DNA of 26,652 nucleotides from a virus: positions 1 through 26,652 of the IMG/VR virus record IMGVR_UViG_3300001353_000013. One strand, written 5' to 3'. This document shows positions 3,001 to 25,091 of this stretch, in pieces. The translations under genes were made by a program, and so were the position numbers. How positions within the stretch are numbered: the first letter of the stretch is position 1; each line of letters begins with the position of its first letter. The notes under the pieces are model-generated. The model saw only the letters and a list, made by a program, of their open reading frames with translations, was not told the DNA's origin and made no database searches.

Positions 3001-6000
3001 GTATTGTTTATGTAAACTGATTTACTAGTAGAATTACCTCCGTTTAAATAATGAGCATCCCACTTAGAAAGAATGTAACCCGCACCTTTTCTTAATTTTA
3101 AAATATTATTAAAATCAATATTGTCAACATCTATAAAATCAATTACATTTTCTTTGTTAACTAAAACAGCATGTTGTAATAACCTATATCCAGGAACCCT
3201 AGCTTTAACCCAAAGATCAGACCCGATATTATAAGCATCTAAAGGACTATCATCTGCATGAATAACTCCTGCTAATGCAGAGGCAATATCACTTAATGTA
3301 CCTTGGTTAGAGAAGAATTTTCCACTATAAGTTCCTTTCGGTAAAGTATAATTAGCAGAATATGTTCTGTTTTGAATATTAATATTGGTTTGAATTTGAT
3401 CAACTCTTATTATAGAACTTATAGCTCCGGTTACCGCCATGTTTAGATCACCTAGGTTTGTTTCAATCTCAGTTAAAACAATAGACTGTGATTGATAATC
3501 AAAACTAATGTGGTAATTACCAACAGCACTAGTCTTTCTGTAGATTGTTATTTTATCTGGATCACTTATCGCCGACTCAATATTACCAGCAGTCTCCTGA
3601 AGAGTAGACCCTAACAATAAAGAATTATCAAATAAATTGTGAGTTCCCTGTGAATCTTCTAATCGAATATTAATACCCTCTCCCGGTGTTTGTTTAATAA
3701 AAGTAAATTTATAAGACTCCTCTCTTGATGCTACCACAGCAATTTTATCATTACTGTCTGGCACATCTACAATAGACATTTTAACAAAATCGTAGCCTCT
3801 TTCGTCATTTTTTATTAGATCGACAGATTTGCCAGTATGTGATATACCTATAGTGCTAGGAATATCTCCAGTAGAATCATCAATTCTAACTTCTAGATTT
3901 AGAGAATCATAAAGACCTGAATTAGATATCTTATAGTATACACCATTAATTAATACATAACCAAGTGTTGGCGTAGTACTCATTTGTTTATGTGTTGGAA
4001 TTGCAGTTGTTGGTTTACTTGGATTTACCAAAGACGAAACCCCTGCGAATTTAATAACATTATTAGATATTGAACTTATTTCACCAAAGCCCGAATCTAT
4101 ATCATCTACGTAAAGACCGAAATACCTATTAATGCTATAATCGCTAGAATCATTATCATCAAATAAAAATTCTAAGTTTAAAAGATTGGCACATAAAATA
4201 TTGTTTCTTCTAAAACCGTCTGTGATAAAGTCATTAGCTTCAATTAAAGCTTTATCAGTCTCTACGAAGTCTTTGTAGATATATTCACCCTTACTAGTTA
4301 ATTCACCAGAAGACAAATCAATACCATTATAGTTAGTAACTTCATTTTTGCCAAGCGAAACAGTAATAGGTGATTTAGGGAATGTTTCCTGTTGTACATG
4401 TGCCCTGATGTATTTACCCAGGTTTGATTTTTTAGATAAATCAAAAGTTTTGATAATCTCAGCGTTCCTTAATATCTCTTGAATCCTCCTAGCATTGTCT
4501 AAAGTAACACCAGATGCATCAACACCCCCTGGGTTTTTAACTTTAAATATAACAAAATTGTTTGGCATGTTATTATCAGCCCAAATAGGTGCCAACATCC
4601 TATAACTCTCATCGTAGTTTTTAGAATAATTATATGTAGTACCATATTGATACTCTTCCTCTATTTGTTTATTATAAGAATCTAATACTGTCAAGTCCGA
4701 CTCAGATCTTTTAGTTAAATAAACAAGATCAGATGTGGTGCCGTTTTTCTTAAAGAAATTAGCAACATCGGTTGAATAATTACCATTAGGATTTATTGGA
4801 CTCTTCTTGTATTTTATACCAGCTAAATCTTTACTAGCACTGATACTTTCCATATAAACTGAACCATCTGAACTTGTAACTAGTTTAACGTTACCTGATA
4901 ATTTGGGGTTAGTTCTTAATAGTGGTTTAGCTACATTGTCTAATTTATAGTTAGTTTCTGTTTTAAAGTTTGGTCCAGCAGAAACAGTTTCATAACCCTC
5001 AACAAACGGGAAAGTATATGTAGTTGTAACGCTTGAATTATCACCTATAACACAGAAACTAGATGCTATACTTTCATATACATCAACTTTAACTTCACTA
5101 CTTAAACCTATTTCAACGCCAGCTGAAACAACTGGCCTTTGTTGAGATGTGATACCTGAATCCTTAAGCAGGGCAATGGCATCGTCAATATCTTCTGCGG
5201 TTATTTTAACACTATACTCTAAACAACTATCAAAGCCGCTGGTCTTGATTACATTACCAAATGATAAAGTATCAATAAATGTTTTTATATAGCTACCAGC
5301 ATCACTAGAAACGTCCGTGTGTAGTCCATTAATAACATATATTGGCCAGAATAAAGTTTCTGTATTATTACCAGCCTCAGGCCCTTCTATTTCCGGATTT
5401 AATGAATAAAAACCATAAAATACATTTATATCATTTACACCAGGTTCCGGTCTAGATATGGTATTATTAGTTATGTTGGGCTTTATATAAGTCGAACACT
5501 GACCACTCGATACTATACTTGATCCGGAAACAGTAAGTCCGTCTGAGTCATAACCATACCATTTTAAATTAGCGCCATCGCCTGGATTTTCCCAAATTAA
5601 ATAGCCAGAAAGATCATTAAACACATTTGATTCAAATAAATCTATTTGATCTTCGCTAGTTGCACCTAATTCAGTTTTATAAACAGGTGTGTTAGATTTA
5701 GCTAATCCTAAAAGATCAGTAAAAGGCGCAGTACCCTCTGGTCTAACATACCACAAAGTGGTGTTCGTAACAACGCCGTTACAAAATTCATTTATACTAG
5801 GATCTGATAAATTTGATTTGTTAGCTACTAAACTATATGTAACGTTAACAATATCCTCTTCACAATACCATTCAAGTGTTCCGATAGAAGTTAATCCCCA
5901 ATCATTAATCAAAGATCTTTTATAATATGTGCCAGCAGGAGCTTCGCTGTAAATACCACTATCAATTAAACCTATCGTACTAGCGCCTCCGGTACTTGTA

Positions 6001-7520
6001 TATAAATCTGAATAATATTCACTAATAAACAGAGGTGTGTTGTCAGCTACTAATTGAGGAAGTGTTTTTTGAGACGCGCCATCATACCATACTGTTATTT
6101 CTTGATAATCTTCAGCACAATGTGTTATTGTGTTAGTTGCATATAAAACCGCAGTAGAACTAGAGTTTACCGAAACAGTACATGGAATAATACCATTAGT
6201 TACAATTTGACCGCTGCTGTTAATTTTTAATACACTTGTGGCACTATTATCTGAGACAGTAATATACACATCTGTCGCGTTTGGTGGTGTAAATTTATTT
6301 AATAAAGATTGATCATAAAAAATAGAATCACCGCCAGATAATTGAGCAACATTATTTGCCTGCACGGTACTTCCGTAGCCAGTCGCCAGTGTTGGAGCGA
6401 TACACATTGTATTAGGATCACTACCGAACGAGCTTATCTGAAAACTAAATACAGGAGAATATTCAACCTCAATATTGATAGTTGTTGGTGCAGATTCAGC
6501 GCCTTTGGAATCAATTGCTTTAATTACCCAACTATCATTACCAAAATAACCTGCATTAGGGGTATATGTAGCCCTTATAGAAGTGTTATCGTTTTGAACA
6601 AATGATATAGTTCCATTAGGGGTTGCTGTTATTTGTATAAACGATACTGGATCACCATCAGCATCTGTCGCATTTACAATAAACGTACTAGTGGTATTTT
6701 GTAAAACGCTCGTACTGGTTGTGGTTATAACTGGTGCAGAATTCTCTGGATTAATAGTTATGATAGCAGGTGCAGATGTTTGATTTGCAGAATCTGTTAC
6801 GGTAAACGTAAACGAATCAGAACCTGCCAGTGTTGAGGTATGTGTATAAGTTACTATATTACCTACAATAGTATATGTTCCTTTGGTAGGCGCCGCTACT
6901 ATATTGTACGTTAAATTATTAGTATCAAAATCATCAGAACCAGATAGTGTAATAGTAACTATATCATTCCATGCCACATCGTATGTTGCACTAATAGCAA
7001 CTGGTGGATTATCTGATGTTGCAGTTGGTGTGGGCGTTGCAGTCGCTGTAGGTTCAGGTGTTGCAGTCGCTGTAAGTTCCGGCGTTGGTGTCGGAGTTGG
7101 AGTTACTACTTCAGTTTCAGTTGGCGTAGGCTCAATTTCAGTTTCAGTTGGCGTAGGTGTAGGCTCAACTTCTGTCGCTGTCGGCGTAGGTGTAGGCTCA
7201 ACTTCTGTCGCTGTCGGCGTAGGTGTAGGCTCAACTTCTGTCGCAGTTGGTGTCGGAGTTACTACCGCACACTCCTCAATTTCAATGACCTCACCAACGG
7301 AACTGATAAGTAATACAACAGTATCATCACTTAATCGCCACCAAAGATCTTGTCCATCAAATTGTGTCCCAAGTTCTAATCCAGGAGTCGTAAATAGTAG
7401 TGTACCTGCCCCTAGCGCGCCTTCATGAAATAATTCAGATAATTCAGTTGTTCCGGTTGCGCCACATGCTGTTATAGCACTTGAATAACCTAGATCAGTT
7501 TTTAATATGATTGATGCCAT
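12..7520 (-). CDS. Giant virion protein / adhesin-like tail fibre (2502 aa), modular
   Basis: This is the largest gene of the window and probably a tail-fibre or baseplate-peripheral protein that contacts the host surface. Residues 1-84 form a small domain bounded by cysteines (C19, C84). Residues 88-169 are a Thr/Pro-rich linker of PTPTPTATEVE repeats. Residues about 172-260 and 261-353 are two cadherin/Ig-like beta-sandwich modules (SGSDDFDTNN, TFTVTDSANQ; NATDADGDPVS, YTPNAGYFGNDS). Residues 373-675 hold further cysteine-bounded modules with LWY/KWY motifs. From about residue 867 (LLRTNPKLSGNVKL) to the end the protein is long, non-repetitive, and rich in Asn, Asp, Tyr and aromatic residues. 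It resembles very large virion proteins I associate with Bacteroidota phages, though this is recollection, not a search. There is no signal peptide and no enzymatic motif. A 55-base leader with a TATATAAT-like element precedes the ATG; there is no Shine-Dalgarno sequence. The virion role is fairly sure; the receptor-binding role is inferred from size, position and modules. Confidence 0.8.
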   Translation of the reverse strand: MASIILKTDLGYSSAITACGATGTTELSELFHEGALGAGTLLFTTPGLELGTQFDGQDLWWRLSDDTVVLLISSVGEVIEIEECAVVTPTPTATEVEPTPTPTATEVEPTPTPTATEVEPTPTPTETEIEPTPTETEVVTPTPTPTPELTATATPEPTATATPTPTATSDNPPVAISATYDVAWNDIVTITLSGSDDFDTNNLTYNIVAAPTKGTYTIVGNIVTYTHTSTLAGSDSFTFTVTDSANQTSAPAIITINPENSAPVITTTSTSVLQNTTSTFIVNATDADGDPVSFIQITATPNGTISFVQNDNTSIRATYTPNAGYFGNDSWVIKAIDSKGAESAPTTINIEVEYSPVFSFQISSFGSDPNTMCIAPTLATGYGSTVQANNVAQLSGGDSIFYDQSLLNKFTPPNATDVYITVSDNSATSVLKINSSGQIVTNGIIPCTVSVNSSSTAVLYATNTITHCAEDYQEITVWYDGASQKTLPQLVADNTPLFISEYYSDLYTSTGGASTIGLIDSGIYSEAPAGTYYKRSLINDWGLTSIGTLEWYCEEDIVNVTYSLVANKSNLSDPSINEFCNGVVTNTTLWYVRPEGTAPFTDLLGLAKSNTPVYKTELGATSEDQIDLFESNVFNDLSGYLIWENPGDGANLKWYGYDSDGLTVSGSSIVSSGQCSTYIKPNITNNTISRPEPGVNDINVFYGFYSLNPEIEGPEAGNNTETLFWPIYVINGLHTDVSSDAGSYIKTFIDTLSFGNVIKTSGFDSCLEYSVKITAEDIDDAIALLKDSGITSQQRPVVSAGVEIGLSSEVKVDVYESIASSFCVIGDNSSVTTTYTFPFVEGYETVSAGPNFKTETNYKLDNVAKPLLRTNPKLSGNVKLVTSSDGSVYMESISASKDLAGIKYKKSPINPNGNYSTDVANFFKKNGTTSDLVYLTKRSESDLTVLDSYNKQIEEEYQYGTTYNYSKNYDESYRMLAPIWADNNMPNNFVIFKVKNPGGVDASGVTLDNARRIQEILRNAEIIKTFDLSKKSNLGKYIRAHVQQETFPKSPITVSLGKNEVTNYNGIDLSSGELTSKGEYIYKDFVETDKALIEANDFITDGFRRNNILCANLLNLEFLFDDNDSSDYSINRYFGLYVDDIDSGFGEISSISNNVIKFAGVSSLVNPSKPTTAIPTHKQMSTTPTLGYVLINGVYYKISNSGLYDSLNLEVRIDDSTGDIPSTIGISHTGKSVDLIKNDERGYDFVKMSIVDVPDSNDKIAVVASREESYKFTFIKQTPGEGINIRLEDSQGTHNLFDNSLLLGSTLQETAGNIESAISDPDKITIYRKTSAVGNYHISFDYQSQSIVLTEIETNLGDLNMAVTGAISSIIRVDQIQTNINIQNRTYSANYTLPKGTYSGKFFSNQGTLSDIASALAGVIHADDSPLDAYNIGSDLWVKARVPGYRLLQHAVLVNKENVIDFIDVDNIDFNNILKLRKGAGYILSKWDAHYLNGGNSTSKSVYINNTTLSEISVGDYLETKYAGIFNEVIDIVEDISIPNSTRSKLILSLKSDIKDGEARVFSENIVKIGLFSAYNIYDMNFDFYDTTNSDLKELDYETRANIAYEPYENTILNIDPITGEYNTTLSANDIFSDNYPLKPINYFSNLSGILSEESVDDISAEIITSEFDRLKENQLKEFATNSRVVPNINKWVLKDSLTVRDQPYYLNTNEAFGRTNFSPDLSATERSKDDMTHEWFYMEKKPSYLRYDELNNTFSYINFIEDFELTPNLFKSTKNNYFDKFMITEGFEKNLNSDDVQGIYDTFGGYTRGYLNPDDINNTFFKTDLKKKYTLIDGGDTGAFASTIFKGLKVVLKNRKEFTNKTALDFVKSSEFNGYKFSILLKTNNDVTNNDVEFEIIQNKKFKFVIFFITLNLGDYWIKGNMNRKMLYELKHKIVYDHTIEDYTYANTPFDGALSWNTANFSEGSPYTIEGINHFDGSIPDFENQIVLGENGLYGDVLMDLYPTTPGNTIYKFKVYSVENSSTIKVVGPPVNVNDPDDVLDVAYLPNNIQRRIKYSYVDGGTNIHETILNKISINSVANMINLNDDSVTYTTVEEDGTINNNRFTINFEDGTEIVKYATLSVEEDNDKPKSYKLFKGIIGYNLTREDDALYYPFLIRHAGAYTVDFRPVVTFTDMYTHFKSNRIQASADQREVGFESIMYKHSLTNSYELTTAKAYYERYNRCGTTFNIGFIQDGGVHDGSWGLIKNHFYHKINETNPTGITKLSESSDKLPLYPLIDEIAISKKDVNVFRSSWDFGYYTRSLSGGKSEDVPGTVDNTEERSYLASTAMKVKNEYNLYSFNYQVIESKEELDEILKNSINDTEVLMFEDENEIIADFYITDVATRILRTDGVLNAIRNYVSAQNSAGDKTTLNDDADFYINKNVISQFVVDSIQLYTKRFKGSASSIVNTVDINLIGDGGFSPDNNFTYKSHKQKPMNFRLIYNKRLGYSYDIKPMIKIKS
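7014..7259 (-). repeat. Tandem repeat encoding a Thr/Pro-rich linker
   Basis: This codes for residues 88-169 of the 2502-aa protein. Two adjacent 33-base units at 7164-7196 and 7197-7229 are identical and encode PTPTPTATEVE. Degenerate copies flank them at 7131-7163 (PTPTPTETEIE) and 7230-7259, and a looser PT/AT-rich tail continues to 7014. The period is a multiple of three, so gain or loss of units keeps the frame and changes only the length of an extended linker between the N-terminal domain and the Ig-like modules. Confidence 0.9.
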
Positions 7521-16590: not shown

Positions 16591-16871
16591 TATCTAGTTT
16601 GATTGTCGTCTTTTTTAACGGTATAATTTTTGTAATTCTTTAAATACCTAGTTCCCTTTAAAAGGTTCTTGATCGCATCTTCTAAAAAGATTAGAAAATG
16701 TTGCATTGTTTGATTTCTTTGAATGTGACCAGAAAGTGATCTACCTATAAATTCACTAGGTGGCAAAGCATCATAGTTGTAACCAACATGAAGTCTTTCG
16801 TCCTTTCTAGCCTTAGTAGTGTCATATCTTTTAACACGTTTATATCCAAGTAAATTATCAAATAAACCCAT
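16590..16871 (-). CDS. Small probable baseplate-associated protein (93 aa), unrecognised
   Basis: A short, basic protein with no recognised family. It begins with an amphipathic stretch (MGLFDNLLGYKRVKRYD), has a central segment LPPSEFIGRSLSGHIQRNQT, and ends in a helix (FLIFLEDAIKNLLKGTRYLK) followed by a lysine-rich tail. It is joined to its neighbours by one-base TAATG overlaps on both sides, so it is expressed with the gp6-like wedge protein and the 911-aa protein and probably assembles with them. Its place between the gp6- and gp7-position genes suggests a small wedge or clamp component, in the manner of T4 gp53. This is inferred from position and size only. Confidence 0.75.
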   Translation of the reverse strand: MGLFDNLLGYKRVKRYDTTKARKDERLHVGYNYDALPPSEFIGRSLSGHIQRNQTMQHFLIFLEDAIKNLLKGTRYLKNYKNYTVKKDDNQTR

Positions 16872-18700
16872 TATTTAAGTGCTTTTCTATTTCCAGCCTG
16901 CATTCTAGTGTATATCGTTCTAGGAACTGGTTCTGCTTCGAAGTTTATACTAACAGCAGCCTCGGAATTAATCAAAACATCATCAACGATTTCATCACCG
17001 TCTCTGTCTTGCCAGCCACCTCTAAATACTGCAACTTCTTCTTTTTCCATTATAATGTCACCCCATTGATCAAGGCCTTTAACAGTATAAGGTATTTCAG
17101 TGGTGTCCGTAACAGGTACTACTTTAACATCTTCAATTCTTTTAAAGTAAACATATTTTTGTTTACCATTACCAACAGTTTCTAACGTCACGGGCTCTTG
17201 TGGAGCAATTGTAACATTAACTGATTCATAATAACCTAATCTTCTAGCAGTCTCTTCAGTTTCTGAAATAAATCTAACGTTAACTGCATCAATACCTTCA
17301 ATCTCTTCTAAGATATAGATGATATCAGATTTTGGTAGTTTATCTCTTCTTGTAATATTCAGTAAATATTCAGACACTTTAGCTCTAACTGCATTATAGA
17401 TTTCATCTTTAGTGTAACCTTCGAAATATCTAATATTAATATCAATACTATAATATCTTACTTGTGGCTTAACAAAAACAACTTCAGTAGTTACCATTTG
17501 TTGGCCACTATCTTCAAGAACTTTATGCATTGCATCATACTCGCCCTGATCTAAAAACATCTCTTCTTGTGGTATTGTAAAATAGTCTTGATTTTTAGCC
17601 AATTTCTTTTTAATATCTGGTACTGCAAAAATATAGATAACATTATCGTCATCTAAATATTGATCATCGGTTGTGTTATATGCATCTATATAAGAGAACA
17701 TGTTATACCTTGATAAGAAATATTCATAATTGTCTGGCGTTGCCAGTACAAAAGACTTACTTGCCATCGGAGTCATAATCTTAGTGAATTGTGTATTCTC
17801 TCTATCACTGCCCATTTTTGGTGATGAAGTAATAGTTACGTCTAAGAATTCATTTAAGTCATGTTCAGTTCCATTTGAATCAGTACCCGTTGCATCCCAT
17901 TTAATAGTTAAATCCGGCGAATCATCAAGATTACCAGCTAAACCTCCGTGTTTTACATATTCTACTTCAATAATTGCACCAACCGGTGGCACCATACCAA
18001 AACTACCATTACCAAAATAAAGGTCTAGACCTCCACTAATTCCTGTTTTAATTAAGTATGCCTTTTCATTTGAACCTAAGTCATATAATGAATTGTGTTT
18101 GGTCCAAAGTTCACCATTAACACTAACCGCAACTTTGCTGTGATCAGTAATACCACCAGTATTAATACTAAATGACTGCAATTTATTACCATCACTGGTT
18201 ACTGTTTGTTTTTCAAATTTACCTTGAATAATAGCAGTCTTAAATGAATTGTAATTTGTTTTCTCTAATTTAAACTTATCTTTAGAATTTAAAAGCGTGT
18301 ATGTTAGGCCATTAATATCAAATTTAAGTTGAGCTCTTGCATCTATGTTTAACGAATTCCCGGCTACTTTACTTAAATCAGCTCCCGGTTTCCATCTAAA
18401 TTCAATTTCACCAGTTGCTGCAAAACCCCTGGTTGCATCATGACCAGTTAATCTAGACATTCCATAAATAGACTCCGGCTGTTGTGCAGTGTATATGTTC
18501 TGCTCTACTACAGAATCTTCAATATAGAACATGATTAATTCTACCATTTCTGATAGAACACTGATTATTTGTGCGAATGGAGATGCCACGGTAAATAGAG
18601 TATTAGCTCTATTGTACACTCTAGAAATATAGGTTCTCGCATCGCTAGTAATATTATCAGCGCTGGTTCTAATTGTACTTAAAAATTTTAATTCGGCCAT
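16871..18700 (-). CDS. Baseplate wedge protein, gp6 / baseplate-J family (609 aa)
   Basis: A core component of the contractile-tail baseplate wedge, which in T4 forms the inner iris that opens on infection. The N-terminus is helical (residues 1-75). The baseplate-J signature is at about 229-257: FGNGSFGMVPPVG, then EVEYVKHGGLAGN, the usual 'F-G-[DN]-G-x-F-G-x-x-P-x-x-G ... GGxxGN' pattern. Residues about 400-520 contain the family's beta/alpha region (YYSIDINIRYFEGYTKDEIY, then a segment on the internal helix of the J-like fold). The length is close to T4 gp6 (660 aa). It follows the gp25-like gene with a 17-base gap, the classic gp25-gp6 neighbourhood. The A/T-rich leader has no Shine-Dalgarno sequence. 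Confidence is high for family and role. Confidence 0.9.
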   Translation of the reverse strand: MAELKFLSTIRTSADNITSDARTYISRVYNRANTLFTVASPFAQIISVLSEMVELIMFYIEDSVVEQNIYTAQQPESIYGMSRLTGHDATRGFAATGEIEFRWKPGADLSKVAGNSLNIDARAQLKFDINGLTYTLLNSKDKFKLEKTNYNSFKTAIIQGKFEKQTVTSDGNKLQSFSINTGGITDHSKVAVSVNGELWTKHNSLYDLGSNEKAYLIKTGISGGLDLYFGNGSFGMVPPVGAIIEVEYVKHGGLAGNLDDSPDLTIKWDATGTDSNGTEHDLNEFLDVTITSSPKMGSDRENTQFTKIMTPMASKSFVLATPDNYEYFLSRYNMFSYIDAYNTTDDQYLDDDNVIYIFAVPDIKKKLAKNQDYFTIPQEEMFLDQGEYDAMHKVLEDSGQQMVTTEVVFVKPQVRYYSIDINIRYFEGYTKDEIYNAVRAKVSEYLLNITRRDKLPKSDIIYILEEIEGIDAVNVRFISETEETARRLGYYESVNVTIAPQEPVTLETVGNGKQKYVYFKRIEDVKVVPVTDTTEIPYTVKGLDQWGDIIMEKEEVAVFRGGWQDRDGDEIVDDVLINSEAAVSINFEAEPVPRTIYTRMQAGNRKALK

Positions 18701-18717: not shown

Positions 18718-19074
18718 TTATAGCATACTTACTTTAATAGCATATCTACTATCTATCGTAATATCTATATATGCAATATCTCTAACTTCACCTTTCATAA
18801 AATTCACCTCAGTTTTAATGTTATATTTTGTCGCAAGCGGACAATAGTGATTTATTTGATCAGTTATTCTAGATCTTATGTTGTGTTCATTTGATCCAAA
18901 GTCATATATAAGTTCCTCTAAACCGCAACCAAAATTAGGAGTACCCATTACCTCTCGCTTATTAGTGAATAGCAACGTTTGTATCTGCGTGATCAACATT
19001 TCTATCTCACTATTAGTCTGAACCTGTGTTTCATCGTAATTCGGGTCGCTCGGATATTTTATATATAGTTCCAT
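18718..19074 (-). CDS. Baseplate wedge protein, gp25-like (118 aa)
   Basis: A small conserved protein of the gp25 / W family, which joins the wedge to the sheath and hub and helps start sheath polymerisation. The family core is visible: I-x-x-L-I-x-T-N-K-R-E-V at about 31-42, then TPNFGCGLEELIYDFGS at 45-61. The usual E-P-R/G-E-x-x-x-x-P-x-x-G pattern is recognisable. The C-terminal strands (VRDIAYIDITID) close the small alpha/beta fold. T4 gp25 is 132 residues, so length fits. It stands directly before the gp6-like gene, as in most contractile-tail phages. The leader upstream of the ATG is A/T-rich, without a Shine-Dalgarno sequence. Confidence 0.9.
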   Translation of the reverse strand: MELYIKYPSDPNYDETQVQTNSEIEMLITQIQTLLFTNKREVMGTPNFGCGLEELIYDFGSNEHNIRSRITDQINHYCPLATKYNIKTEVNFMKGEVRDIAYIDITIDSRYAIKVSML

Positions 19075-19095: not shown

Positions 19096-19938
19096 TTAAG
19101 AGTGCATCATCCAATCAACACCTTCATCTCCTTTGATCTCTTCGTCAATGGCTGCTAACTCATCATCTCCCATGGATTTAATAGCATCGTAATCAAAATC
19201 AACATTTCCGGGTAAAGCAAATTTAAAAATACCTAATTTAGTACCGATTGATTGTTTAATTTTAGCACTAACATATCTAAAGAAAATTTCATCGCTATAT
19301 AGCGCACAATCTGGTATCGTCTCATACACCTCAAGAATAACATCTCCTTTAGGTGTATCACCTAAGAATTTTAATTCACCGGTTAAACTTGAATAATTAT
19401 ATGATATGGGATTCTCTAGAATCTGTCTAGATAAGTCTGCCATCGAAGCATTCAATACATAATATTGTAATTCTTCTGCAGCCTCAGCCATTCCAGAACC
19501 TTCATACATACCTCTAAATAGCATTCTTTCCATAGAAAAGTCAGAACCAGATTGGAATCTTAAATCCATTCCACCACCGCCGCCATTCCATCCAGAAGCT
19601 AAGTCATATAAACCATAAACCGAGTATACTCCACCGCCACCATCTAAACCAGGGCCTGGTAAATTAAGTGCTCGGTGTGATTTAAAGTAATCAGTACTAA
19701 ATACATTACTTGGTATATGATAGAAATTCTCTTTTACAGAGTACTCATATTTTTTATAGAACCATTTTTTAGCTCTCTTAATAATATTAATGATTTCTTT
19801 TTGTGGTAGATTGATAGGAACCATACAGGCTCCAGTAATATCATCTGCTACTTCGTCTAAGAATAGATTTAAACAGTTAGGATCAAAATACCTTCCGGTA
19901 GTTAAATCATTATTTGAGCCGCTTATAATTTCACCCAT
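19096..19938 (-). CDS. Probable neck or tail virion protein (280 aa)
   Basis: I do not recognise the family securely. The protein has a helical N-terminus (LNLFLDEVADDI, then QKEIINIIKRAKKWFYKKYEY at about 46-66), a glycine-rich loop region (runs of four to five glycines near 99-103 and 119-123), a second helical part (ERMLFRGMYEGSGM, EEELQYY-like), and a beta/alpha C-terminus (PKGDVILEVYETIP, RYVSAKIKQSIGTKLGIF). The C-terminal tail is strongly acidic (SMGDDELAAIDEEIKGDEG). The pattern is like tail-completion or neck proteins of T4-type phages, and the neighbouring gp25-like gene supports a virion role. It follows the amidoligase-like gene by seven bases, so it may be a substrate or partner of that enzyme. 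That link is speculation. Confidence 0.65.
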   Translation of the reverse strand: MGEIISGSNNDLTTGRYFDPNCLNLFLDEVADDITGACMVPINLPQKEIINIIKRAKKWFYKKYEYSVKENFYHIPSNVFSTDYFKSHRALNLPGPGLDGGGGVYSVYGLYDLASGWNGGGGGMDLRFQSGSDFSMERMLFRGMYEGSGMAEAAEELQYYVLNASMADLSRQILENPISYNYSSLTGELKFLGDTPKGDVILEVYETIPDCALYSDEIFFRYVSAKIKQSIGTKLGIFKFALPGNVDFDYDAIKSMGDDELAAIDEEIKGDEGVDWMMHS

Positions 19939-19945
19939 TTTTTAT

Positions 19946-21253
19946 TTATTTTATTTTTTTACTTACAACAATTTCTGTTTCTTCAAACCTAGCATCTTTG
20001 CTAGTGAAGCCCTCTCTAAATATACCACCTATCATTTTACCCCTAAACATAGTGTCTCTGCCGGCAACATAACAGTTGGTTAATTCACAACTACCATGCG
20101 TATAACTAGATTCAACTTTAGAGTCTTTCACTTTAGTAGCTCTATATAAACTACCCCACATAACAGCAGAACTCGTGATATTGCAGTTATAAAAACTACA
20201 ATTAGTTAAATTACCTGCAAGTTCACAATCAATAAATTCAAAATTTTCTAAAAGATAAACAGTTGGAAATTTACCATCTTTAACCTGTACCGCGCCATAA
20301 TCTGAATCGTAGTTTATAACACCAGCGGTCATTGATCCATTTACAATAAGATCCATAACTCTATTTTTAAACCTTTCCCATTGTACTCGTATAATAGTTG
20401 GATTATCTTGTAGATCGACTAATATTTGTATATCTGGCCAGTGCTCAGATACTTTAGAGTAATCTTTGAGCATATCCATTATGGGTTTATTCTTATTTAT
20501 AATTCTCTGTAATTCAATTTTATTTTCAGCAGTAAAACGAGGATCGTTACAAGAGTTCCACATTTGCATTAGGAACCTTTCAATTAGGTATAAAATATTA
20601 TCCGTTTTTTTCTCATAATCTGCACCACCCAAATATCTAAACTCAAGATAGTTCTTTTCTTTTTTAGAAAAGTTTATACCATAATATTTCGTATCGGCAA
20701 ATTTAAAATTATTTGATGCTACTTGATTTGCATCAAAGTGAAATGCTTCCCATTTTGGCATTACCCATTTAATACTTTTAGCGTATGCTGATTTTTCTCT
20801 GTTTGGAAAAAACTTATAGATTTGTTGCTCATCAAAGTCTAAGATAAATTTAAGAACATTCATCTTAGAAATAAGTGCAGGATCCTCTAAATATTTTTTA
20901 TCGAAAGATAAATTAATGTGGATTGACGCCCTATCATTGGTATATCCATTTTCAGATATCCAATTAAGCATTTTAATTACCATAATCCTAGCGTTTCTAT
21001 ACGGAATAGGACCAGTAACTAACTCGATTAGGCCTTTACCACCAGACATGTCTGGTTCCATTTTAAACTCTTCAGCTGAAGGTTGAAAATCAGAATGTGC
21101 CTTATCTTCTAACCTAATTTTTCGATCTAGAAGCTTTGCCAATGATTTTTGGGTAGCTTCTAGATCGAAATTAGAATAGAATTCAAACTCAACACCCATA
21201 AGTGCCGCGTTCAAAATTGATTCTCTTGAGGAATCTATAGTTAATTTTTGCAT
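19946..21253 (-). CDS. Amidoligase-like enzyme with C-terminal beta-helix-like repeats (435 aa)
   Basis: Residues about 15-260 show the pattern of the amidoligase / COOH-NH2 ligase branch of the glutamine-synthetase-like fold: G20-V-E-F-E-F25 (metal-binding Glu residues), E66-P-D68-M-S70 followed by E77-L-V-T-G-P82, a histidine strand S110-I-H-I-N114, and E204-F-R-Y-L-G-G210. Enzymes of this superfamily use ATP to join an amine to a carboxylate, often on a peptide or protein. Residues about 338-425 form irregular short repeats (FEFIDCEL, CSFYNCNI, CELTNCYV) like a pentapeptide or right-handed beta-helix, suited to binding a large surface. The gene lies inside the baseplate cluster, preceded by a 56-base gap with a possible promoter. 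The predicted function is modification of a virion or host protein; substrate unknown. The start is the first in-frame ATG, with no Shine-Dalgarno sequence. Confidence 0.7.
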   Translation of the reverse strand: MQKLTIDSSRESILNAALMGVEFEFYSNFDLEATQKSLAKLLDRKIRLEDKAHSDFQPSAEEFKMEPDMSGGKGLIELVTGPIPYRNARIMVIKMLNWISENGYTNDRASIHINLSFDKKYLEDPALISKMNVLKFILDFDEQQIYKFFPNREKSAYAKSIKWVMPKWEAFHFDANQVASNNFKFADTKYYGINFSKKEKNYLEFRYLGGADYEKKTDNILYLIERFLMQMWNSCNDPRFTAENKIELQRIINKNKPIMDMLKDYSKVSEHWPDIQILVDLQDNPTIIRVQWERFKNRVMDLIVNGSMTAGVINYDSDYGAVQVKDGKFPTVYLLENFEFIDCELAGNLTNCSFYNCNITSSAVMWGSLYRATKVKDSKVESSYTHGSCELTNCYVAGRDTMFRGKMIGGIFREGFTSKDARFEETEIVVSKKIK

Positions 21254-21309: not shown

Positions 21310-22605
21310 TTAAGGCATTTTCAAAAATACTTTCATTGACTCAACGTCAATTCTGGTAATTTGTACCGTGATTGGATCTCCGTTCTTAAATACGCTCATA
21401 ACTTCTTCACCAACTTCGCTTACATGTAGTAGTCCAGTCACTCCTTCTTCAATACTAATAAATAAACCGTAGTCTTTTTTAGTTTTGACAGTAGCTTCAA
21501 CTACTGAAGGAATTTGATATCTAGATTGAATATCACTCCATGGATTAACAGTAGCATTAGCCTTTTGAGTAAGTGTGATCTTAGTATCACTGATAATATC
21601 CTTAACGATAAATGTGATTTCATCACCAGGCTGAATCTGTCTAGCTTTGAATTTAATAAGAGTTTCCTCATCTAAGTCGTTATTATGGATCATACCAGTC
21701 AAACAACCATTAAATTCAACAAATATACCATATTTAGCAGTACCTGTTACATTACCTGTAATTTCAGCACCTTGATTTGCTTTTATGTTTTCAATCTCGT
21801 TTGGAATTAAAGCCTGTAGATATTTTCTGTGAGAAACTACCAATGTACCTCTATCTGGTGAGAAACTTACAGGAACAACATAGATTTCAGTACCAATAAT
21901 AGAACTAAAGTCATGTAGTTTATTAATACCTGCTAATGAACCTGGCATAAAACAATCAATTCCCTGAATATTTACCATATAACCACCATTCTCAATCATA
22001 TGTGTAACTTTACCAACCCATGCGGTTCCACCAACTTCAACGGCTTCTCTAAGATCCATAAAGACTCTGTGTTTTATACCACCGTTAATTGATCCGACTA
22101 CATGTGAGTTGTTATCAGTTGAGGTAATTAAAACTGATGTTTCTTCACCCGGTTTTAAGGCTTGAATCGCAGCAGGTTCCTTATCATATTTAACATATAT
22201 TAGTTCTCTGTAACCAATATCGACACTAATAAACTCTGAGCTAATACCATAAACCGTTCCAGTATGAATTTCTCCAACACCTACAATAGTTACCATATTA
22301 CCCAAAGCAGCATCATGTGCGGTAAGCATGTCGTACATTTCTTGAGCATATGATTCTCTAGAAAAGACCTTATCGCCATTCATGGTTTTAATATGTGGAT
22401 TTGGTTTTTTGGTTTTTGATGGGCAACTAGCTTCATAAGCATCCCACATGAAGTTTCCCTCTTCATCGTAATAATCATCCGATATATCACCACCATCTGA
22501 TTTAAGATCTTTTAAGTTTTCGACCGTGATGTCTAGTTCTTCAACTTCTACAGTATTGACTTTAGTTTCGCCAATTCTGATCCTTTTGTTTTTTTCGTTG
22601 TTCAT
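21310..22605 (-). CDS. Ribosomal protein bS1-like protein with four S1 domains (431 aa)
   Basis: Four S1-type OB domains are visible at about 102-172 (HTGTVYGISSEFISVDIGY), 193-260 (GGYMVNIQGIDCFMPGS, then VVSHR), 278-347 (GTAKYGIFVEFNGCLTGMIH) and 365-430 (KDYGLFISIEEGVTGLLHVS). The N-terminal 100 residues contain an acidic stretch and F52-M-W-D-A-Y-E, like the F-N-W-D-A-F-E motif I recall in Bacteroidota bS1, followed by a helix leading into domain 1. Order and spacing look colinear with domains 1-4 of bacterial bS1 (six domains, roughly 600 aa); domains 5-6 are absent. In bacteria the first two domains dock on the 30S subunit and the next ones bind mRNA, so the phage protein could steer ribosomes to phage transcripts. 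It lies unexpectedly within a baseplate cluster and has its own 45-base leader. S1 assignment is secure; function is inferred. Confidence 0.9.
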   Translation of the reverse strand: MNNEKNKRIRIGETKVNTVEVEELDITVENLKDLKSDGGDISDDYYDEEGNFMWDAYEASCPSKTKKPNPHIKTMNGDKVFSRESYAQEMYDMLTAHDAALGNMVTIVGVGEIHTGTVYGISSEFISVDIGYRELIYVKYDKEPAAIQALKPGEETSVLITSTDNNSHVVGSINGGIKHRVFMDLREAVEVGGTAWVGKVTHMIENGGYMVNIQGIDCFMPGSLAGINKLHDFSSIIGTEIYVVPVSFSPDRGTLVVSHRKYLQALIPNEIENIKANQGAEITGNVTGTAKYGIFVEFNGCLTGMIHNNDLDEETLIKFKARQIQPGDEITFIVKDIISDTKITLTQKANATVNPWSDIQSRYQIPSVVEATVKTKKDYGLFISIEEGVTGLLHVSEVGEEVMSVFKNGDPITVQITRIDVESMKVFLKMP

Positions 22606-22630
22606 TTATTTTTATATTAAAGGTGTAACA

Positions 22631-22641
22631 TATTATATATC
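22631..22641 (-). promoter_or_regulatory. Possible late promoter element (GATATATAATA) before the S1-domain gene
   Basis: The 45-base gap between the 574-aa and S1-domain genes holds GATATATAATA on the minus strand, 25 bases before the ATG. It is identical over 11 bases to the copy at 7557-7567. Its position in one of only three gaps above 40 bases suggests a function, most likely a phage late promoter. The composition is purely AT after the first base, so chance cannot be excluded. Confidence 0.3.
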
Positions 22642-22650
22642 TATTTATTT

Positions 22651-24375
22651 TTAGAAGACTACCGGTACAAAACCTACCATCGGCACGGGACCTACTGGTG
22701 TTGGTATACCTCCTAAATAGAGTAATTTAAATTCTAACAAGTGTAGAGCATATGCCGCGGCAACTGCTGTAGAAACCGCAAGTGCTGGTGGTTGAGGTGC
22801 TGGCAATACACTAAATGTTTTACCAGTATTCCAAGCTCTTCTAAGATTTTTAGCTAGTCTCTTTTTACCACCATAATAAATCGGTATATAAATACCAGTT
22901 AATGGTGGGGGAATTAAAGCTGGCAAAGCAGATGGTGATGGAGCAAATGGTTTAACTAAACATGCATACCAATACGCAATAGTTATTTCAGCCATTTCTT
23001 CATATGGATCTCCACCTGGCCAACTAAAATTTATATCAACATCCTCCTCTGCCGTGTCACATTCGTCAGCTGCTTTTTTAGCATCAATAACCTGTTGTCT
23101 TTGAAACTTAAAAATAGTACCGCCGGCGTTTGGGCTTATATTAATAATATCATCAGCTGACTTAACATTTTTAATGGCTCCGGGAATTTTTGCCCAATGT
23201 ATATCGTACTCTAATTTTTCATATTGTGCCGTTACATATGTGTTGTCTTTTTTCCACCAAATCACTTTAGTATCGTCGGATACACCGTATTTAAAACTCA
23301 TTTCAGATCCGTTGTCATATGAAAAAAGAGCAACTACATGGTCCGTTAAAATTTTAGGTCTTTTGCTTGGATAATCTGGCAAATTATGTTCCCTGTCAAA
23401 AGAAACCTGTATTTTGTATTCAGAGAGTGGACAGTCTGACATTTTAAAATTGTCTAAACCGGCTTCAAACGCCGAACTTACACCATCAACCAGGGCTTGC
23501 CAATCATATCCTGCGCCCTCTATATCTGTTCTAGCTTTTTCACTCACATTAACGTATGGAAATCTACCGACAAAATAAGTACCTCCAACCGCTCGCTGTA
23601 TTTCAGTAAGATTATTGTACTTTGATTTACCTAAACTGGTGGCCCATAATTTATATTTGTCTTTTTCTTCTTGACTGGACAAATTGTGATATTGCTGTAA
23701 TAATCTATTTGCAAATGACTTGGCCAAATCTGATACAGTTTCTGAACCGTCTAAACATTCAAACTCAAAAAATCTAAACTTATATAAGTTTAAACTCTGT
23801 TTGTAATCTTCAACAAATTTATTAAATTTCTTTTGTTGTTTCTTTTCTTCTTCGATTGGATCTGGCTCTTCAATGGGTTCTGGACAAAAATCGGTATATG
23901 CTGGATGAGACTCTTTGCCCATTTCAATTATATTACCGTCTTTATCTTTCTGGTCTAATAAAGGAATATCGCCCTCTCTTAATATTCTTTCAAACACCAA
24001 GCCATAACCCTGTTTTAAAAGAAACTCTGCCGCTGGATTATTAGTATGTGTTGCACCAAATGGTGTCATTGCTAATCCCTTTATTGCCTCTAGATATCTT
24101 TCTGCTACTCTTACACCAAAATCATATCGACCACTTAATGGGTTTAAATTAATAGCATTAATCATCGATGTCGGATCAGTCGTCAAGTTAGCATTAACTG
24201 GATTTCCGGGTTTAATAGATTCTATTAATTCTGAAGATGGGGGGAAAATAGGCACTTGATCCTTGCCAACTTTTGGCAGATCATAAGATACCATACCGCC
24301 ACCCGGTTTAGTAAACGACTGCCCCGATATATCGGACGCTAATGCTGGTATAAATGATGGCCAAAGTGCGGGCAT
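22651..24375 (-). CDS. Unrecognised virion protein next to the spike, with hydrophobic Pro-rich C-terminus (574 aa)
   Basis: I do not recognise this family. The N-terminus is Pro/Gly-rich (LWPSFIPALASDISG, FTKPGGGMVSYDLP). Residues about 85-135 contain helices (ERYLEAIKGLAM, AEFLLKQGYGLVFERILREG). An acidic, charged coiled segment lies at about 165-195 (PEPIEEPDPIEEEKKQQKKF). A mixed alpha/beta part follows (WQALVDGVSSAFEAGLDNF; HVVALFSYDNGSEMSFKYG; KVIWWKKDNTYVTAQYEKLE). The last 110 residues are unusual: Pro-rich hydrophobic runs (PFAPSPSALPALIPPPLTG), an Ala-rich helix (LAVSTAVAAAYALHLLEFK) and a Val/Pro/Gly end. The gene starts two bases after the stop of the spike gene, so the products probably act together in the baseplate hub or tail tip. 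A leader with AAGG about nine bases before the ATG is the only Shine-Dalgarno-like sequence I noticed near a start. A membrane-contacting role is speculation. Confidence 0.75.
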   Translation of the reverse strand: MPALWPSFIPALASDISGQSFTKPGGGMVSYDLPKVGKDQVPIFPPSSELIESIKPGNPVNANLTTDPTSMINAINLNPLSGRYDFGVRVAERYLEAIKGLAMTPFGATHTNNPAAEFLLKQGYGLVFERILREGDIPLLDQKDKDGNIIEMGKESHPAYTDFCPEPIEEPDPIEEEKKQQKKFNKFVEDYKQSLNLYKFRFFEFECLDGSETVSDLAKSFANRLLQQYHNLSSQEEKDKYKLWATSLGKSKYNNLTEIQRAVGGTYFVGRFPYVNVSEKARTDIEGAGYDWQALVDGVSSAFEAGLDNFKMSDCPLSEYKIQVSFDREHNLPDYPSKRPKILTDHVVALFSYDNGSEMSFKYGVSDDTKVIWWKKDNTYVTAQYEKLEYDIHWAKIPGAIKNVKSADDIINISPNAGGTIFKFQRQQVIDAKKAADECDTAEEDVDINFSWPGGDPYEEMAEITIAYWYACLVKPFAPSPSALPALIPPPLTGIYIPIYYGGKKRLAKNLRRAWNTGKTFSVLPAPQPPALAVSTAVAAAYALHLLEFKLLYLGGIPTPVGPVPMVGFVPVVF

Positions 24376-24377
24376 AA

Positions 24378-25091
24378 TTATTTACCTTTTTGTTGATAGT
24401 TAATATGAGTGCTCGATAATTTTCCTACTGTTATTGGAGTTGGTGGCATTGGGGGTCCAGAAGGACCCACGCCAGTTGGATGTATATGTGCATTATAATC
24501 GTCTAACCACATTTGTAACCAATCCTGTAGAGATTGACCCCTCACTGCTGGTTCTGTTTCATCTGCTCCCGGCTCGCCCGTATTTGAAACGAATATATCA
24601 CCACAGTCTAAGAACATTTTAGCATCTGTACTGATTTTTATAAATCCCTCTTCGTCCATTTGAATGATTGGGCGCTCTTTGGCACCGCTACCTCTTGTGA
24701 TAACTAAACCATCTTCAGGAGAATGATAGATCCTTACGTTGCGCACAGCATCATATACTAGCGATATAACATCATGTGGTGCATCAGAAGTTTCTAAAAT
24801 ATCTGACTTAAGATCTGTATTTTGATCTATTTGAAACCAGTATTCAGGGTGGTAGATGTTACCGTTGTCAAAACGAACTGCAACAATATCACCAACTCTA
24901 GGTACTGCATGTGCACCAACTTGATCCCTATTCATAGGGGTTGCCCACGGAATTGCATCATCAGTTAGTTTATCAAATTTACCATAAACTTTAACCCTAC
25001 ATCTTCCGTTTAAAAGAGGATCTTCGTTAACTACAACTTCCCCAAGCCAGTGTTGATCCCTTAAATTATCTTTAAAAAGTTCATCAGCCAT
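24378..25091 (-). CDS. Baseplate hub / spike protein with gp5-type OB fold (237 aa)
   Basis: The central tail spike that pierces the cell envelope. Residues 15-90 are a gp5/VgrG-type OB domain: WLGEVVVNEDPLLNGRCRV, then KVYGKFD, IPWATPMN, VPRVGDIVAVRFDNGNIYHP and EYW. Residues about 105-170 are beta-strands (DGLVITRGSG, IIQMDEEGFIKIS). The tail end contains RGQSLQDWLQMWLDDYNAHIHPTGVGPSGPP (given in two parts: RGQSLQDWLQMW at about 184-195, AHIHPTGVGPSGPP at 201-214), a common end of phage spikes and hub proteins. There is no lysozyme domain and no long beta-helix, so the 575-residue T4 gp5 is much larger. Its start overlaps the stop of the 458-aa gene by one base (TAATG). Family and role are well supported. 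Confidence 0.88.
   Translation of the reverse strand: MADELFKDNLRDQHWLGEVVVNEDPLLNGRCRVKVYGKFDKLTDDAIPWATPMNRDQVGAHAVPRVGDIVAVRFDNGNIYHPEYWFQIDQNTDLKSDILETSDAPHDVISLVYDAVRNVRIYHSPEDGLVITRGSGAKERPIIQMDEEGFIKISTDAKMFLDCGDIFVSNTGEPGADETEPAVRGQSLQDWLQMWLDDYNAHIHPTGVGPSGPPMPPTPITVGKLSSTHINYQQKGK

What the first reader, a model, noticed from the sequence alone, without database searches (positions are those of the whole stretch)
21310..22605. Phage-borne bS1 look-alike that keeps the ribosome-docking half of Bacteroidota bS1
Four S1 domains appear colinear with bS1 domains 1-4, including the N-terminal F-x-W-D-A-Y-E motif and the 'VSHR/VSHK' end of domain 2, while domains 5-6 are missing. In Bacteroidota most genes lack Shine-Dalgarno sequences and initiation depends on A-rich leaders. 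The genes in this window have exactly such leaders. A truncated bS1 made late in infection, among virion genes, could replace or compete with host bS1 and favour phage mRNAs. An alternative is a regulatory or packaged RNA-binding protein.
Basis: partly seen in the sequence, partly recalled or inferred. Interest (0 to 1): 0.8.

Follow-up and report, generated by a model that had tools for sequence, protein, structure and literature searches.

The report
Phage copy of ribosomal protein bS1
A large phage, probably of Bacteroidota bacteria, carries a shortened, strongly altered relative of the ribosomal protein that brings messages to the ribosome, and it keeps the part that in known bacteria fastens this protein to the ribosome, so the phage may use it to steer the host's protein synthesis toward its own genes.

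Summary
Observation confirmed. The ORF (minus strand, 431 aa) has four S1 domains: the first two match bS1 D1 and D2 specifically, the last two are D3-D5-like; D5-D6 are absent. A structure model aligns over residues 88-431 with E. coli bS1 1-348 as seen on the 30S. An N-terminal F-x-W element typical of Bacteroidia bS1 (41 of 50 in a class draw; 0 of 63 more distant bS1) is in 54 of 54 distinct proteins of the window's clade, but not in the 462-735 kb huge phages. The gene lies among baseplate genes in 80 of 80 nearest loci, is under purifying selection, and has 505 or more IMG/VR relatives. Phage leaders lack SD (5 of 124, chance 4.9). Nine of 18 records with the gene also encode bS21. Against Bacteroidia descent: plain similarity does not favour Bacteroidia and the tree cannot place the long-branched clade. 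Ribosome binding and replacement of host bS1 are inferred. Huge-phage S1 proteins and this hypothesis are in print (Al-Shayeb 2020), which left 'true rpS1' open. New variant of a known kind.

The parts
21310..22605 (-). ORF, 431 aa, four S1 domains, bS1-like
22432..22452 (-). residues 52-58 FMWDAYE, N-terminal F-x-W element shared with Bacteroidia bS1
   Evidence: F.W in 54 of 54 distinct window-clade proteins, 41 of 50 class-draw Bacteroidia bS1, 0 of 63 more distant phylum-draw bS1
22366..22425 (-). residues 61-80, phage-specific basic insert (KTKKPNPHIKTMNGDKV at 64-80); Trp54-to-D1 distance 54-57 in phages against 27-35 in Bacteroidia hosts
   Evidence: motif in 44 of 54 window-clade proteins, 0 of 200 host bS1; a looser form in a Lak phage
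22303..22365 (-). residues 81-101, with a helix at 87-101 ahead of D1, the place of the uS2-docking helix of bS1
   Evidence: model; aligned ranges begin at model 88-92 and bS1 1-3, single residue pairs not shown; register uncertain
22072..22275 (-). S1 domain 1 (residues 111-178), bS1 D1-like
   Evidence: (23.6 bits against 6.0 for the next domain)
21820..22032 (-). S1 domain 2 (residues 192-262), bS1 D2-like, ends VVSHR
   Evidence: (39.5 bits against 14.5)
21562..21771 (-). S1 domain 3 (residues 279-348), D3-D5-like
21319..21516 (-). S1 domain 4 (residues 364-429), D4/D5-like
22606..22650 (-). A/T-rich leader without SD
19946..21253 (-). conserved 435-aa gene next to the S1 gene, no Pfam or PHROG match found
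   Evidence: 54-72 bases downstream of the S1 match in 80 of 80 loci L003-L082
16871..19938 (-). baseplate and neck genes: gp6-like wedge (16871-18700), gp25-like (18718-19074), Ad2-like adaptor (19096-19938)
22651..25091 (-). 574-aa gene of unknown function (22651-24375) and gp5-type baseplate OB protein (24378-25091)

Best explanation
A phage-encoded bS1 derived from, or remodelled on, a Bacteroidia-type bS1. Most likely it docks on the host 30S subunit at the mRNA exit site through its N-terminal element, helix and domain 1, as bS1 does. Its domains 2-4 then hold and unfold phage mRNA leaders, so that SD-less, A-rich phage mRNAs initiate well when virion proteins are needed. By occupying the site it would replace or compete with the weakly bound host bS1. 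Shown here: homology, domain order for D1-D2, a docking-helix-like element, the Bacteroidia-type N-terminal element, purifying selection, position among baseplate genes, SD-less genes. Inferred: ribosome binding, replacement of host bS1, preference for phage mRNAs, late timing, and the host.
For: bS1 profile match over 79-430; E. coli bS1 in PDB 9.2e-42; D1 and D2 specificity; model aligned to 30S-bound bS1, Z 14.6, 326 residues, range 88-431 with 1-348, and Z 13.1-13.6 at 4.2-4.3 A for the D1-D2 part; F-x-W element of Bacteroidia bS1; Phe130 and Pro132 equivalents invariant in all 187 rows; no SD in phage leaders; dN/dS 0.067 against L008, eight flanking genes 0.000-0.121; bS21, another platform protein, in 5 of 12 IMG/VR and 4 of 6 huge/Lak records that carry the gene (the 429-kb record of L376 and LR756500 carry an identical S1 protein and are probably one phage, without bS21); in E. 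coli bS1 without D5-D6 is viable and D1-D3 are the essential part (Duval 2013, passages). The Lak version ends after D3.
Against: No experiment. Identity to host bS1 is about 25% and the stem is 4.97 changes per column, so function may have moved. By plain similarity Bacteroidia are not the nearest: bS1 with the F-x-W element score 77-108 bits (median 95) against the window protein, those of the phylum draw without it 91-120 (median 104), E. coli 101, Tsukamurella 106; of the 30 best phylum-draw loci none has the element. Lys43, inserted in the uS2 Zn pocket in E. coli, is Arg in 54 of 54; Lys117 and Arg142, kept in nearly all cellular rows, are lost. The register that pairs Phe5/Phe9 with phage Tyr86/Tyr91 holds in one alignment but not in another nor by the ranges. 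The F-x-W element is missing in the 462-735 kb phages. The model is middling (pLDDT 73, pTM 0.47; 1-43 and 224-231 below 50) and Foldseek's whole-length superposition poor (TM 0.31, 15 A). bS21 was not found in Lak-A1 or LR756500 or in 7 of 12 IMG/VR fragments.
Confidence: 0.58

Rival explanations
1. Ribosome-docked decoy: it occupies the bS1 site on 30S to blunt host translation (dominant negative), while phage mRNAs with weak structure initiate without bS1.
For: The docking half is kept while residues of the D2 RNA face are lost (Lys117, Arg142 equivalents); D5-D6 absent. SD-less A-rich leaders would suit bS1-independent initiation.
Against: Domains 3 and 4 are kept and share conserved Phe/Tyr/His positions with host S1 domains; the gene sits with virion genes, which need active translation.
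Confidence: 0.12
2. Free RNA chaperone or regulator acting off the ribosome, for example protecting or unfolding late phage mRNA or coupling it to RNA polymerase.
For: S1 domains are generic RNA binders; Al-Shayeb 2020 allows a role 'on or off the ribosome'; in Lak phage the gene lies near a tRNA-His guanylyltransferase and a DnaB-like helicase; the tree does not tie it to any bS1 clade.
Against: Specific match of the first two domains to D1 and D2, held to be mostly ribosome-binding in E. coli (passages), and the retained N-terminal element.
Confidence: 0.15
3. Virion component: an RNA- or protein-binding part of the baseplate, or a packaged protein injected at the start of infection.
For: 80 of 80 nearest loci keep it among baseplate genes; in LR756500 the same genes follow in the same order with others between; homologues of the window's large tail proteins lie near it in LR745206 and LR756502, and a weakly tail-tube-like gene (1.2e-4) beside it in LR756501.
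Against: In Lak phage it is near nucleic-acid genes, and no window tail gene was found within 15 kb. Five cultured phages with a related wedge protein gave no match, so it is not needed for such a baseplate. Its best structure matches are bS1.
Confidence: 0.09
4. Relict bS1: an acquired bS1 now kept only for an unrelated binding role.
For: Very long stem and 66 host-to-phage switches at positions conserved on both sides, against 51 shared positions.
Against: Invariant core residues and purifying selection.
Confidence: 0.06

Closest known systems
bS1 (RpsA) of Bacteroidia (6 S1 domains)
   Same: D1-D2 order and specificity, F-x-W N-terminal element, VSH at the end of D2, conserved Gly/Phe/Pro core
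   Different: About 25% identity; ends after four domains; about 20-30 extra residues before D1, partly a basic insert; Lys43 to Arg, Lys117 and Arg142 lost
S1-domain proteins ('rpS1') of huge phages, Al-Shayeb et al. 2020 (PMC7162821)
   Same: Homologues in uncultured phage genomes of 462-735 kb (LR745206, LR756500-504), which I take, from memory, to be genomes of that study; same SD-less setting reported there (passages)
   Different: The window clade has the Bacteroidia F-x-W element and the insert; the paper left open whether the proteins are true rpS1
Phage bS21 (Mizuno 2019 PMC6375957; Chen 2022 PMC9723584)
   Same: Phage-borne 30S platform protein, in Chen's case in Bacteroidetes phages near virion genes, proposed to redirect initiation; co-occurs here in 9 of 18 records, one phage probably counted twice
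   Different: Another protein; Mizuno set S1 domains aside as ambiguous (passages); 'bS1', 'rpS1', 'protein S1', 'S1 domain' do not occur in Chen's main text
bS1 of Microcystis phage PhiMa05 (record MaAM05; PMC13157829)
   Same: Phage-encoded bS1
   Different: Vampirovibrio-type bS1 beside bL21 and bL27; distant (22.5% over 66%)
UniProt/BFVD entries A0A8D9CG03 and A0A6J5NIG6 ('30S ribosomal protein S1') and A0A7S9STL2 of uncultured phages
   Same: Best viral structure matches (E 9e-27 to 1.6e-39)
   Different: Names as in the database; I did not look for papers on these entries

Membership tests
bS1 (ribosomal protein S1) | Several tandem S1 domains in bS1 order | tested here: met
   Four domains; p1 to D1 and p2 to D2 specific, p3/p4 in the D3-D5 group without a unique assignment
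bS1 (ribosomal protein S1) | Score above a curated bS1 equivalog cut-off | tested here: not met
   Best NF004952 161.9 bits, cut-off 524; that model is 580 positions long, of which 22-373 are matched
bS1 (ribosomal protein S1) | N-terminal uS2-docking helix with an aromatic pair | tested here: inconclusive
   Helix present and inside the aligned range; aromatic register differs between alignments
bS1 (ribosomal protein S1) | Lys43-type residue in loop 2 of D1 (uS2 Zn pocket) | tested here: inconclusive
   Arg133 in 54 of 54 window-clade proteins, Lys in 5 of 7 huge/Lak rows, Lys in 120 of 120 Bacteroidota and 5 of 6 outgroup rows
bS1 (ribosomal protein S1) | Branches among bS1 proteins in a tree | tested here: inconclusive
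   Phage rows one clade (99, SH-aLRT) on a stem of 4.97; union with Bacteroidia p-AU 0.415, with all Bacteroidota 0.427
bS1 (ribosomal protein S1) | Binds 30S and supports initiation | not testable with these tools
   needs biochemistry
Bacteroidia-type bS1 | N-terminal F-x-W element upstream of the docking helix | tested here: met
   54 of 54 window-clade; 41 of 50 class draw, 80 of 80 named Bacteroidales (a set partly fetched by that motif), in the phylum draw 7 of 7 near and 0 of 63 far
Bacteroidia-type bS1 | Closest in sequence to Bacteroidia bS1 | tested here: not met
   Median 95 bits to bS1 with the element, 104 to other phylum-draw bS1, 101 to E. coli; the long branch makes this weak evidence
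PNPase, RNase R, Tex and other single-S1 proteins | Catalytic domains plus one S1 domain | tested here: not met
   Only S1 domains found by Pfam; PNPase and RNase R models match by their one S1 domain
Huge-phage rpS1-like proteins | Sequence homology to S1 proteins of huge-phage genomes | tested here: met
   tblastn to LR756500 1e-58 and LR745206 4e-39; profile A2 matches all 6 huge/Lak records at 2.6e-113 or better, but all six proteins are rows of A2

The most novel reading that the evidence does not exclude
Bacteroidota phages rebuild the mRNA exit site of the host 30S with their own bS1 (this protein), in many cases together with their own bS21, making a phage-specific ribosome that initiates on SD-less phage leaders, with a remodelled OB2 face (Lys117 lost, an aromatic Tyr209 where most Bacteroidia have Leu or Met) and a basic phage-only insert as selectivity parts.
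Probability: 0.25. Interest if true: 0.8.

Novelty: new variant of a known kind. Interest (0 to 1): 0.5.

Why it matters
Al-Shayeb et al. (2020) noted S1 proteins in SD-less huge phages but wrote that true rpS1 is difficult to confirm; Mizuno et al. (2019) set S1 domains aside. The D1/D2 specificity, the docking-helix-like element and an N-terminal element typical of Bacteroidia bS1 give concrete, testable marks of bS1 descent in a large phage family. If the protein exchanges into ribosomes it would be a natural tool to study how Bacteroidia ribosomes choose mRNAs without Shine-Dalgarno pairing, which is an open question.

Tried and rejected
PNPase or RNase R origin: rejected, since such models match only by their one S1 domain. 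Placement by tree: not decisive; a quick tree and two AU tests neither place the phage clade in Bacteroidota nor reject it; a third AU test (phage with the other Bacteroidota) did not finish and was not repeated. For one search five rows were dropped (L090, L300, L246, L247, L257) as long branches. Placement by similarity: does not favour Bacteroidia. Unique assignment of domains 3 and 4: failed, D3-D6 profiles cross-match. Lak truncation as a recoding artefact: checked, the gene ends at the same place under code 15, where TAG is read through. The 435-aa neighbour looked to me, from memory, like an amidoligase; Pfam gave nothing up to E 1, so I do not name it. A RimK-like (bS6-modifying) gene near phage bS21: PHROG 8.2e-9, but Pfam gives general ATP-grasp families and RimK only at 0.012, below its cut-off; dropped. 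A search for virion proteomics with S1 in Bacteroidota phages listed two papers that do not bear on it by title and abstract start. Papers were searched (open-licence PMC only). A Jug-phage preprint (PMC12363816, passages) gave nothing on S1. Some short 'phage' records with S1 hits look bacterial (L089: its bS1 is up to 89% identical to named Bacteroidales) and L089 was used as host. E. coli S1 domain boundaries used to cut domains were recalled.

Full report
What is there. The window is a 26,652-base IMG/VR viral record. Its ORF at 21310-22605 is on the minus strand, 431 aa, start ATG, in a run of minus-strand genes that includes a gp5-type OB protein, an Ad2-like adaptor, gp25-like and gp6-like wedge proteins. 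Pfam places two S1 domains; bS1 profiles, alignment, domain HMMs and model show four.

Is it bS1? NCBIfam bS1 models cover 79-430 in one stretch (best 1.9e-47), though far below the cut-offs set for cellular bS1; PNPase models match by their one S1 domain. phmmer against PDB gives E. coli bS1 9.2e-42, best stretch 111-428 to 21-344. HMMs cut from an alignment of 137 bS1 proteins (of 207 at hand; the 80 named Bacteroidales were thinned to about one in eight) put p1 on D1 and p2 on D2 with clear margins; p3 and p4 fall in the D3-D5 group without a unique place. The AlphaFold model (38-row alignment, pLDDT 73, pTM 0.47) has four OB barrels and a helix at 87-101. Foldseek's best PDB match is a chain of the 30S mRNA delivery complex '(bS1 resolved)', 5.4e-26, with TM 0.31 and 15 A over the whole length. 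VIA-align gives Z 14.6 for 9gut_B, range 88-431 with 1-348, rmsd 14.8 A over 326 residues, and Z 13.1-13.6 at 4.2-4.3 A for chains with the first two domains. The high whole-length rmsd I put down to hinges between barrels (inference). The program shows first and last aligned residue only, so that the helix lies on the docking helix follows from the ranges (model 88-92, bS1 1-3), not from printed pairs.

The N-terminal element. F-x-W ahead of the docking helix (FDWDAYE and the like) occurs within the first 150 residues of 41 of 50 bS1 of the class draw (24 of the 30 best by similarity to the window protein, 17 of 20 that I picked from the listing), in 80 of 80 named Bacteroidales (biased: one of six fetching patterns was this motif), and in the phylum draw in 7 of 7 proteins with 640 or more bits to a Bacteroidales bS1 but 0 of the 63 others (one protein is in both draws). 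Of 166 phage loci, 160 carry F.W..[YF]; of 54 distinct window-clade proteins 54 carry F.W and 52 the fuller F.W[DE].[YF]E. The six loci without it are huge phages (L083, L085-L088, L376); the Lak protein has FNWTPYE. Between this element and D1 the window clade has 54-57 residues, Bacteroidia hosts 27-35. Part of the extra stretch is basic and conserved: 44 of 54 window-clade proteins fit one strict pattern, a Lak protein a looser one, 0 of 200 host bS1 the strict one.

Against a Bacteroidia origin. By plain blastp score to the window protein, bS1 with the F-x-W element reach 77-108 bits (median 95, n 48), those of the phylum draw without it 91-120 (median 104, n 63), E. coli 101, Tsukamurella 106, other outgroups 75-102; none of the 30 best phylum-draw loci has the element. 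In the tree of 82 rows x 328 columns the 14 phage rows form one clade (99, SH-aLRT only) on a stem of 4.97 changes per column, outside the Bacteroidota cells; the program warns that long branches meet. Holding the phages with Bacteroidia, or with all Bacteroidota, is not rejected (p-AU 0.415, 0.427; 77 rows). Descent from a Bacteroidia bS1 therefore rests on the N-terminal element and the setting, not on tree or score; a bS1 that acquired the element to bind the same host site is possible.

Residues named as docking or mRNA contacts by D'Urso 2023 (PMC10123108, passages), over 54 window-clade, 7 huge/Lak, 50 class-draw, 70 phylum-draw and 6 outgroup rows: Phe130 and Pro132 (the latter added by me) are invariant. 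Phe120 is Tyr in 54 of 54 window-clade and Phe or Tyr in 7 of 7 huge/Lak rows, but Leu, Phe or Met (37, 7, 6) in the class draw. Lys43 is Lys in 120 of 120 Bacteroidota and Arg in 54 of 54 window-clade rows. Lys117, Lys in 126 of 126 cellular rows, is acidic in 54 of 54 window-clade rows (Asn if the gap is placed as). Phe79 and Gln7 equivalents are not conserved, in hosts either. The helix register is unsettled: lays phage SYAQ on E. coli SFAQ, and the ranges shift it by six to eight residues. So the anchor is kept in outline and the OB2 surface has changed. Between window clade and Bacteroidia 51 conserved positions are shared and 66 are switched.

Family and setting. In the 80 nearest loci the 435-aa gene follows the S1 match by 54-72 bases and the Ad2-like gene is present in 80 of 80; gp25-like in 78, gp6-like in 77, gp5-type in 66, the others being cut by contig ends or not detected. 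These loci are redundant: 166 phage loci hold 61 distinct proteins. In LR756500 (462 kb) the same genes follow in the same order with others between, and homologues of the window's large tail proteins lie near the gene in LR745206 and LR756502. In Lak phage the protein ends after D3, also under code 15, and lies near Thg1 and a DnaB-like helicase. Five cultured phages with a related wedge protein that I chose (PTm1, pT24, PAU, MaF61, MA9V-1) gave no match to profile A2. dN/dS between the window and L008 is 0.067 for this gene, 0.000-0.121 for eight neighbours. In the 150-kb relative the gene lies in a run of same-strand genes from 10 to 56 kb that holds the tail block and also bS21, PhoH, DnaJ and DNA-metabolism genes, so late expression is an inference from the tail neighbours only. 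Host: wedge relatives are mostly in phages of Bacteroidota (Prevotella, Tenacibaculum, Chryseobacterium, Flavobacterium), but Rhizobium and Sphingomonas phages are listed too.

Translation setting. 13 of 14 window leaders lack an SD-like 4-mer. In the 150-kb contig 5 of 124 have one, shuffled mean 4.9; A is 0.50-0.54 in the last 20 bases against 0.42-0.44 further up. bS21 is found in 5 of 12 IMG/VR records (fragments) and 4 of 6 huge/Lak records with the S1 gene, 0 of 5 cultured relatives without it; one phage (L376 and LR756500, no bS21) is probably counted twice. I have no background rate, so this is a hint only. In E. coli D5-D6 are dispensable and D1-D3 essential (Duval 2013, PMC3858243, passages), which is what these phages keep.

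Literature. Al-Shayeb 2020 (PMC7162821, passages) reported S1 proteins in huge phages, linked them to lack of SD, proposed hijacking of initiation and said true rpS1 is difficult to confirm. Mizuno 2019 (PMC6375957, passages) left S1 domains out. Chen 2022 (PMC9723584, two of six parts and a term search) treats bS21. McNutt 2023 (PMC9976891, passages) reports that added F. johnsoniae bS1 promoted initiation on an SD-less mRNA. PhiMa05 bS1 (PMC13157829, passages) is another lineage. 'Moraphages' (PMC12619734, passages), large aquatic phages with Flavobacteriales-type heat-shock genes, may be the lineage of the window; not tested.

Verdict. What I add is the Bacteroidia N-terminal mark, the phage-specific insert, the mapped residue switches, the extent and synteny of the family, and the co-occurrence with bS21; I did not find these in the papers seen. 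Function remains inferred.

Noticed in passing
L377-L381 (IMG/VR contigs); LR756501, LR756502, LR756504, LR745206: Phage bS21 occurs in 9 of 18 records that carry the S1 gene, about 19-141 kb from it; in the 150-kb contig a DnaJ-type chaperone gene and PhoH lie within 1.5 kb of it.
   Followed up: partly
window 12-7520 (-): 2502-aa tail protein with a TPTPTATEVEP-type low-complexity repeat and bacterial Ig/cadherin-like domains; homologous pieces lie near the S1 gene in two 635-642 kb phages.
   Followed up: partly
window 19946-21253 (-): 435-aa gene of unknown family, beside the S1 gene in 80 of 80 nearest loci; no Pfam match up to E 1.
   Followed up: partly
L084 16668-17477 and 17922-19097: In Lak phage the three-domain S1 gene lies near a tRNA-His guanylyltransferase and a DnaB-like helicase.
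   Followed up: partly
L089 and perhaps other short 'Bacteriophage sp.' records: L089, filed as phage, holds a complete six-domain bS1 up to 89% identical to named Bacteroidales, so it is probably a bacterial fragment; the other short records were not checked.
   Followed up: partly
PDB 9zcd_A: A Bacteroidota-type bS1 chain (591 aa, 2.9e-243 to the Bacteroidales bS1) is in the 2026 PDB sequence set; it is not among the rows shown by the fold search.
   Followed up: no
L247, L250, L257: A divergent group in the Bacteroidia class draw has bS1 without the F-x-W element and with 45-47% identity to a Bacteroidales bS1.
   Followed up: no
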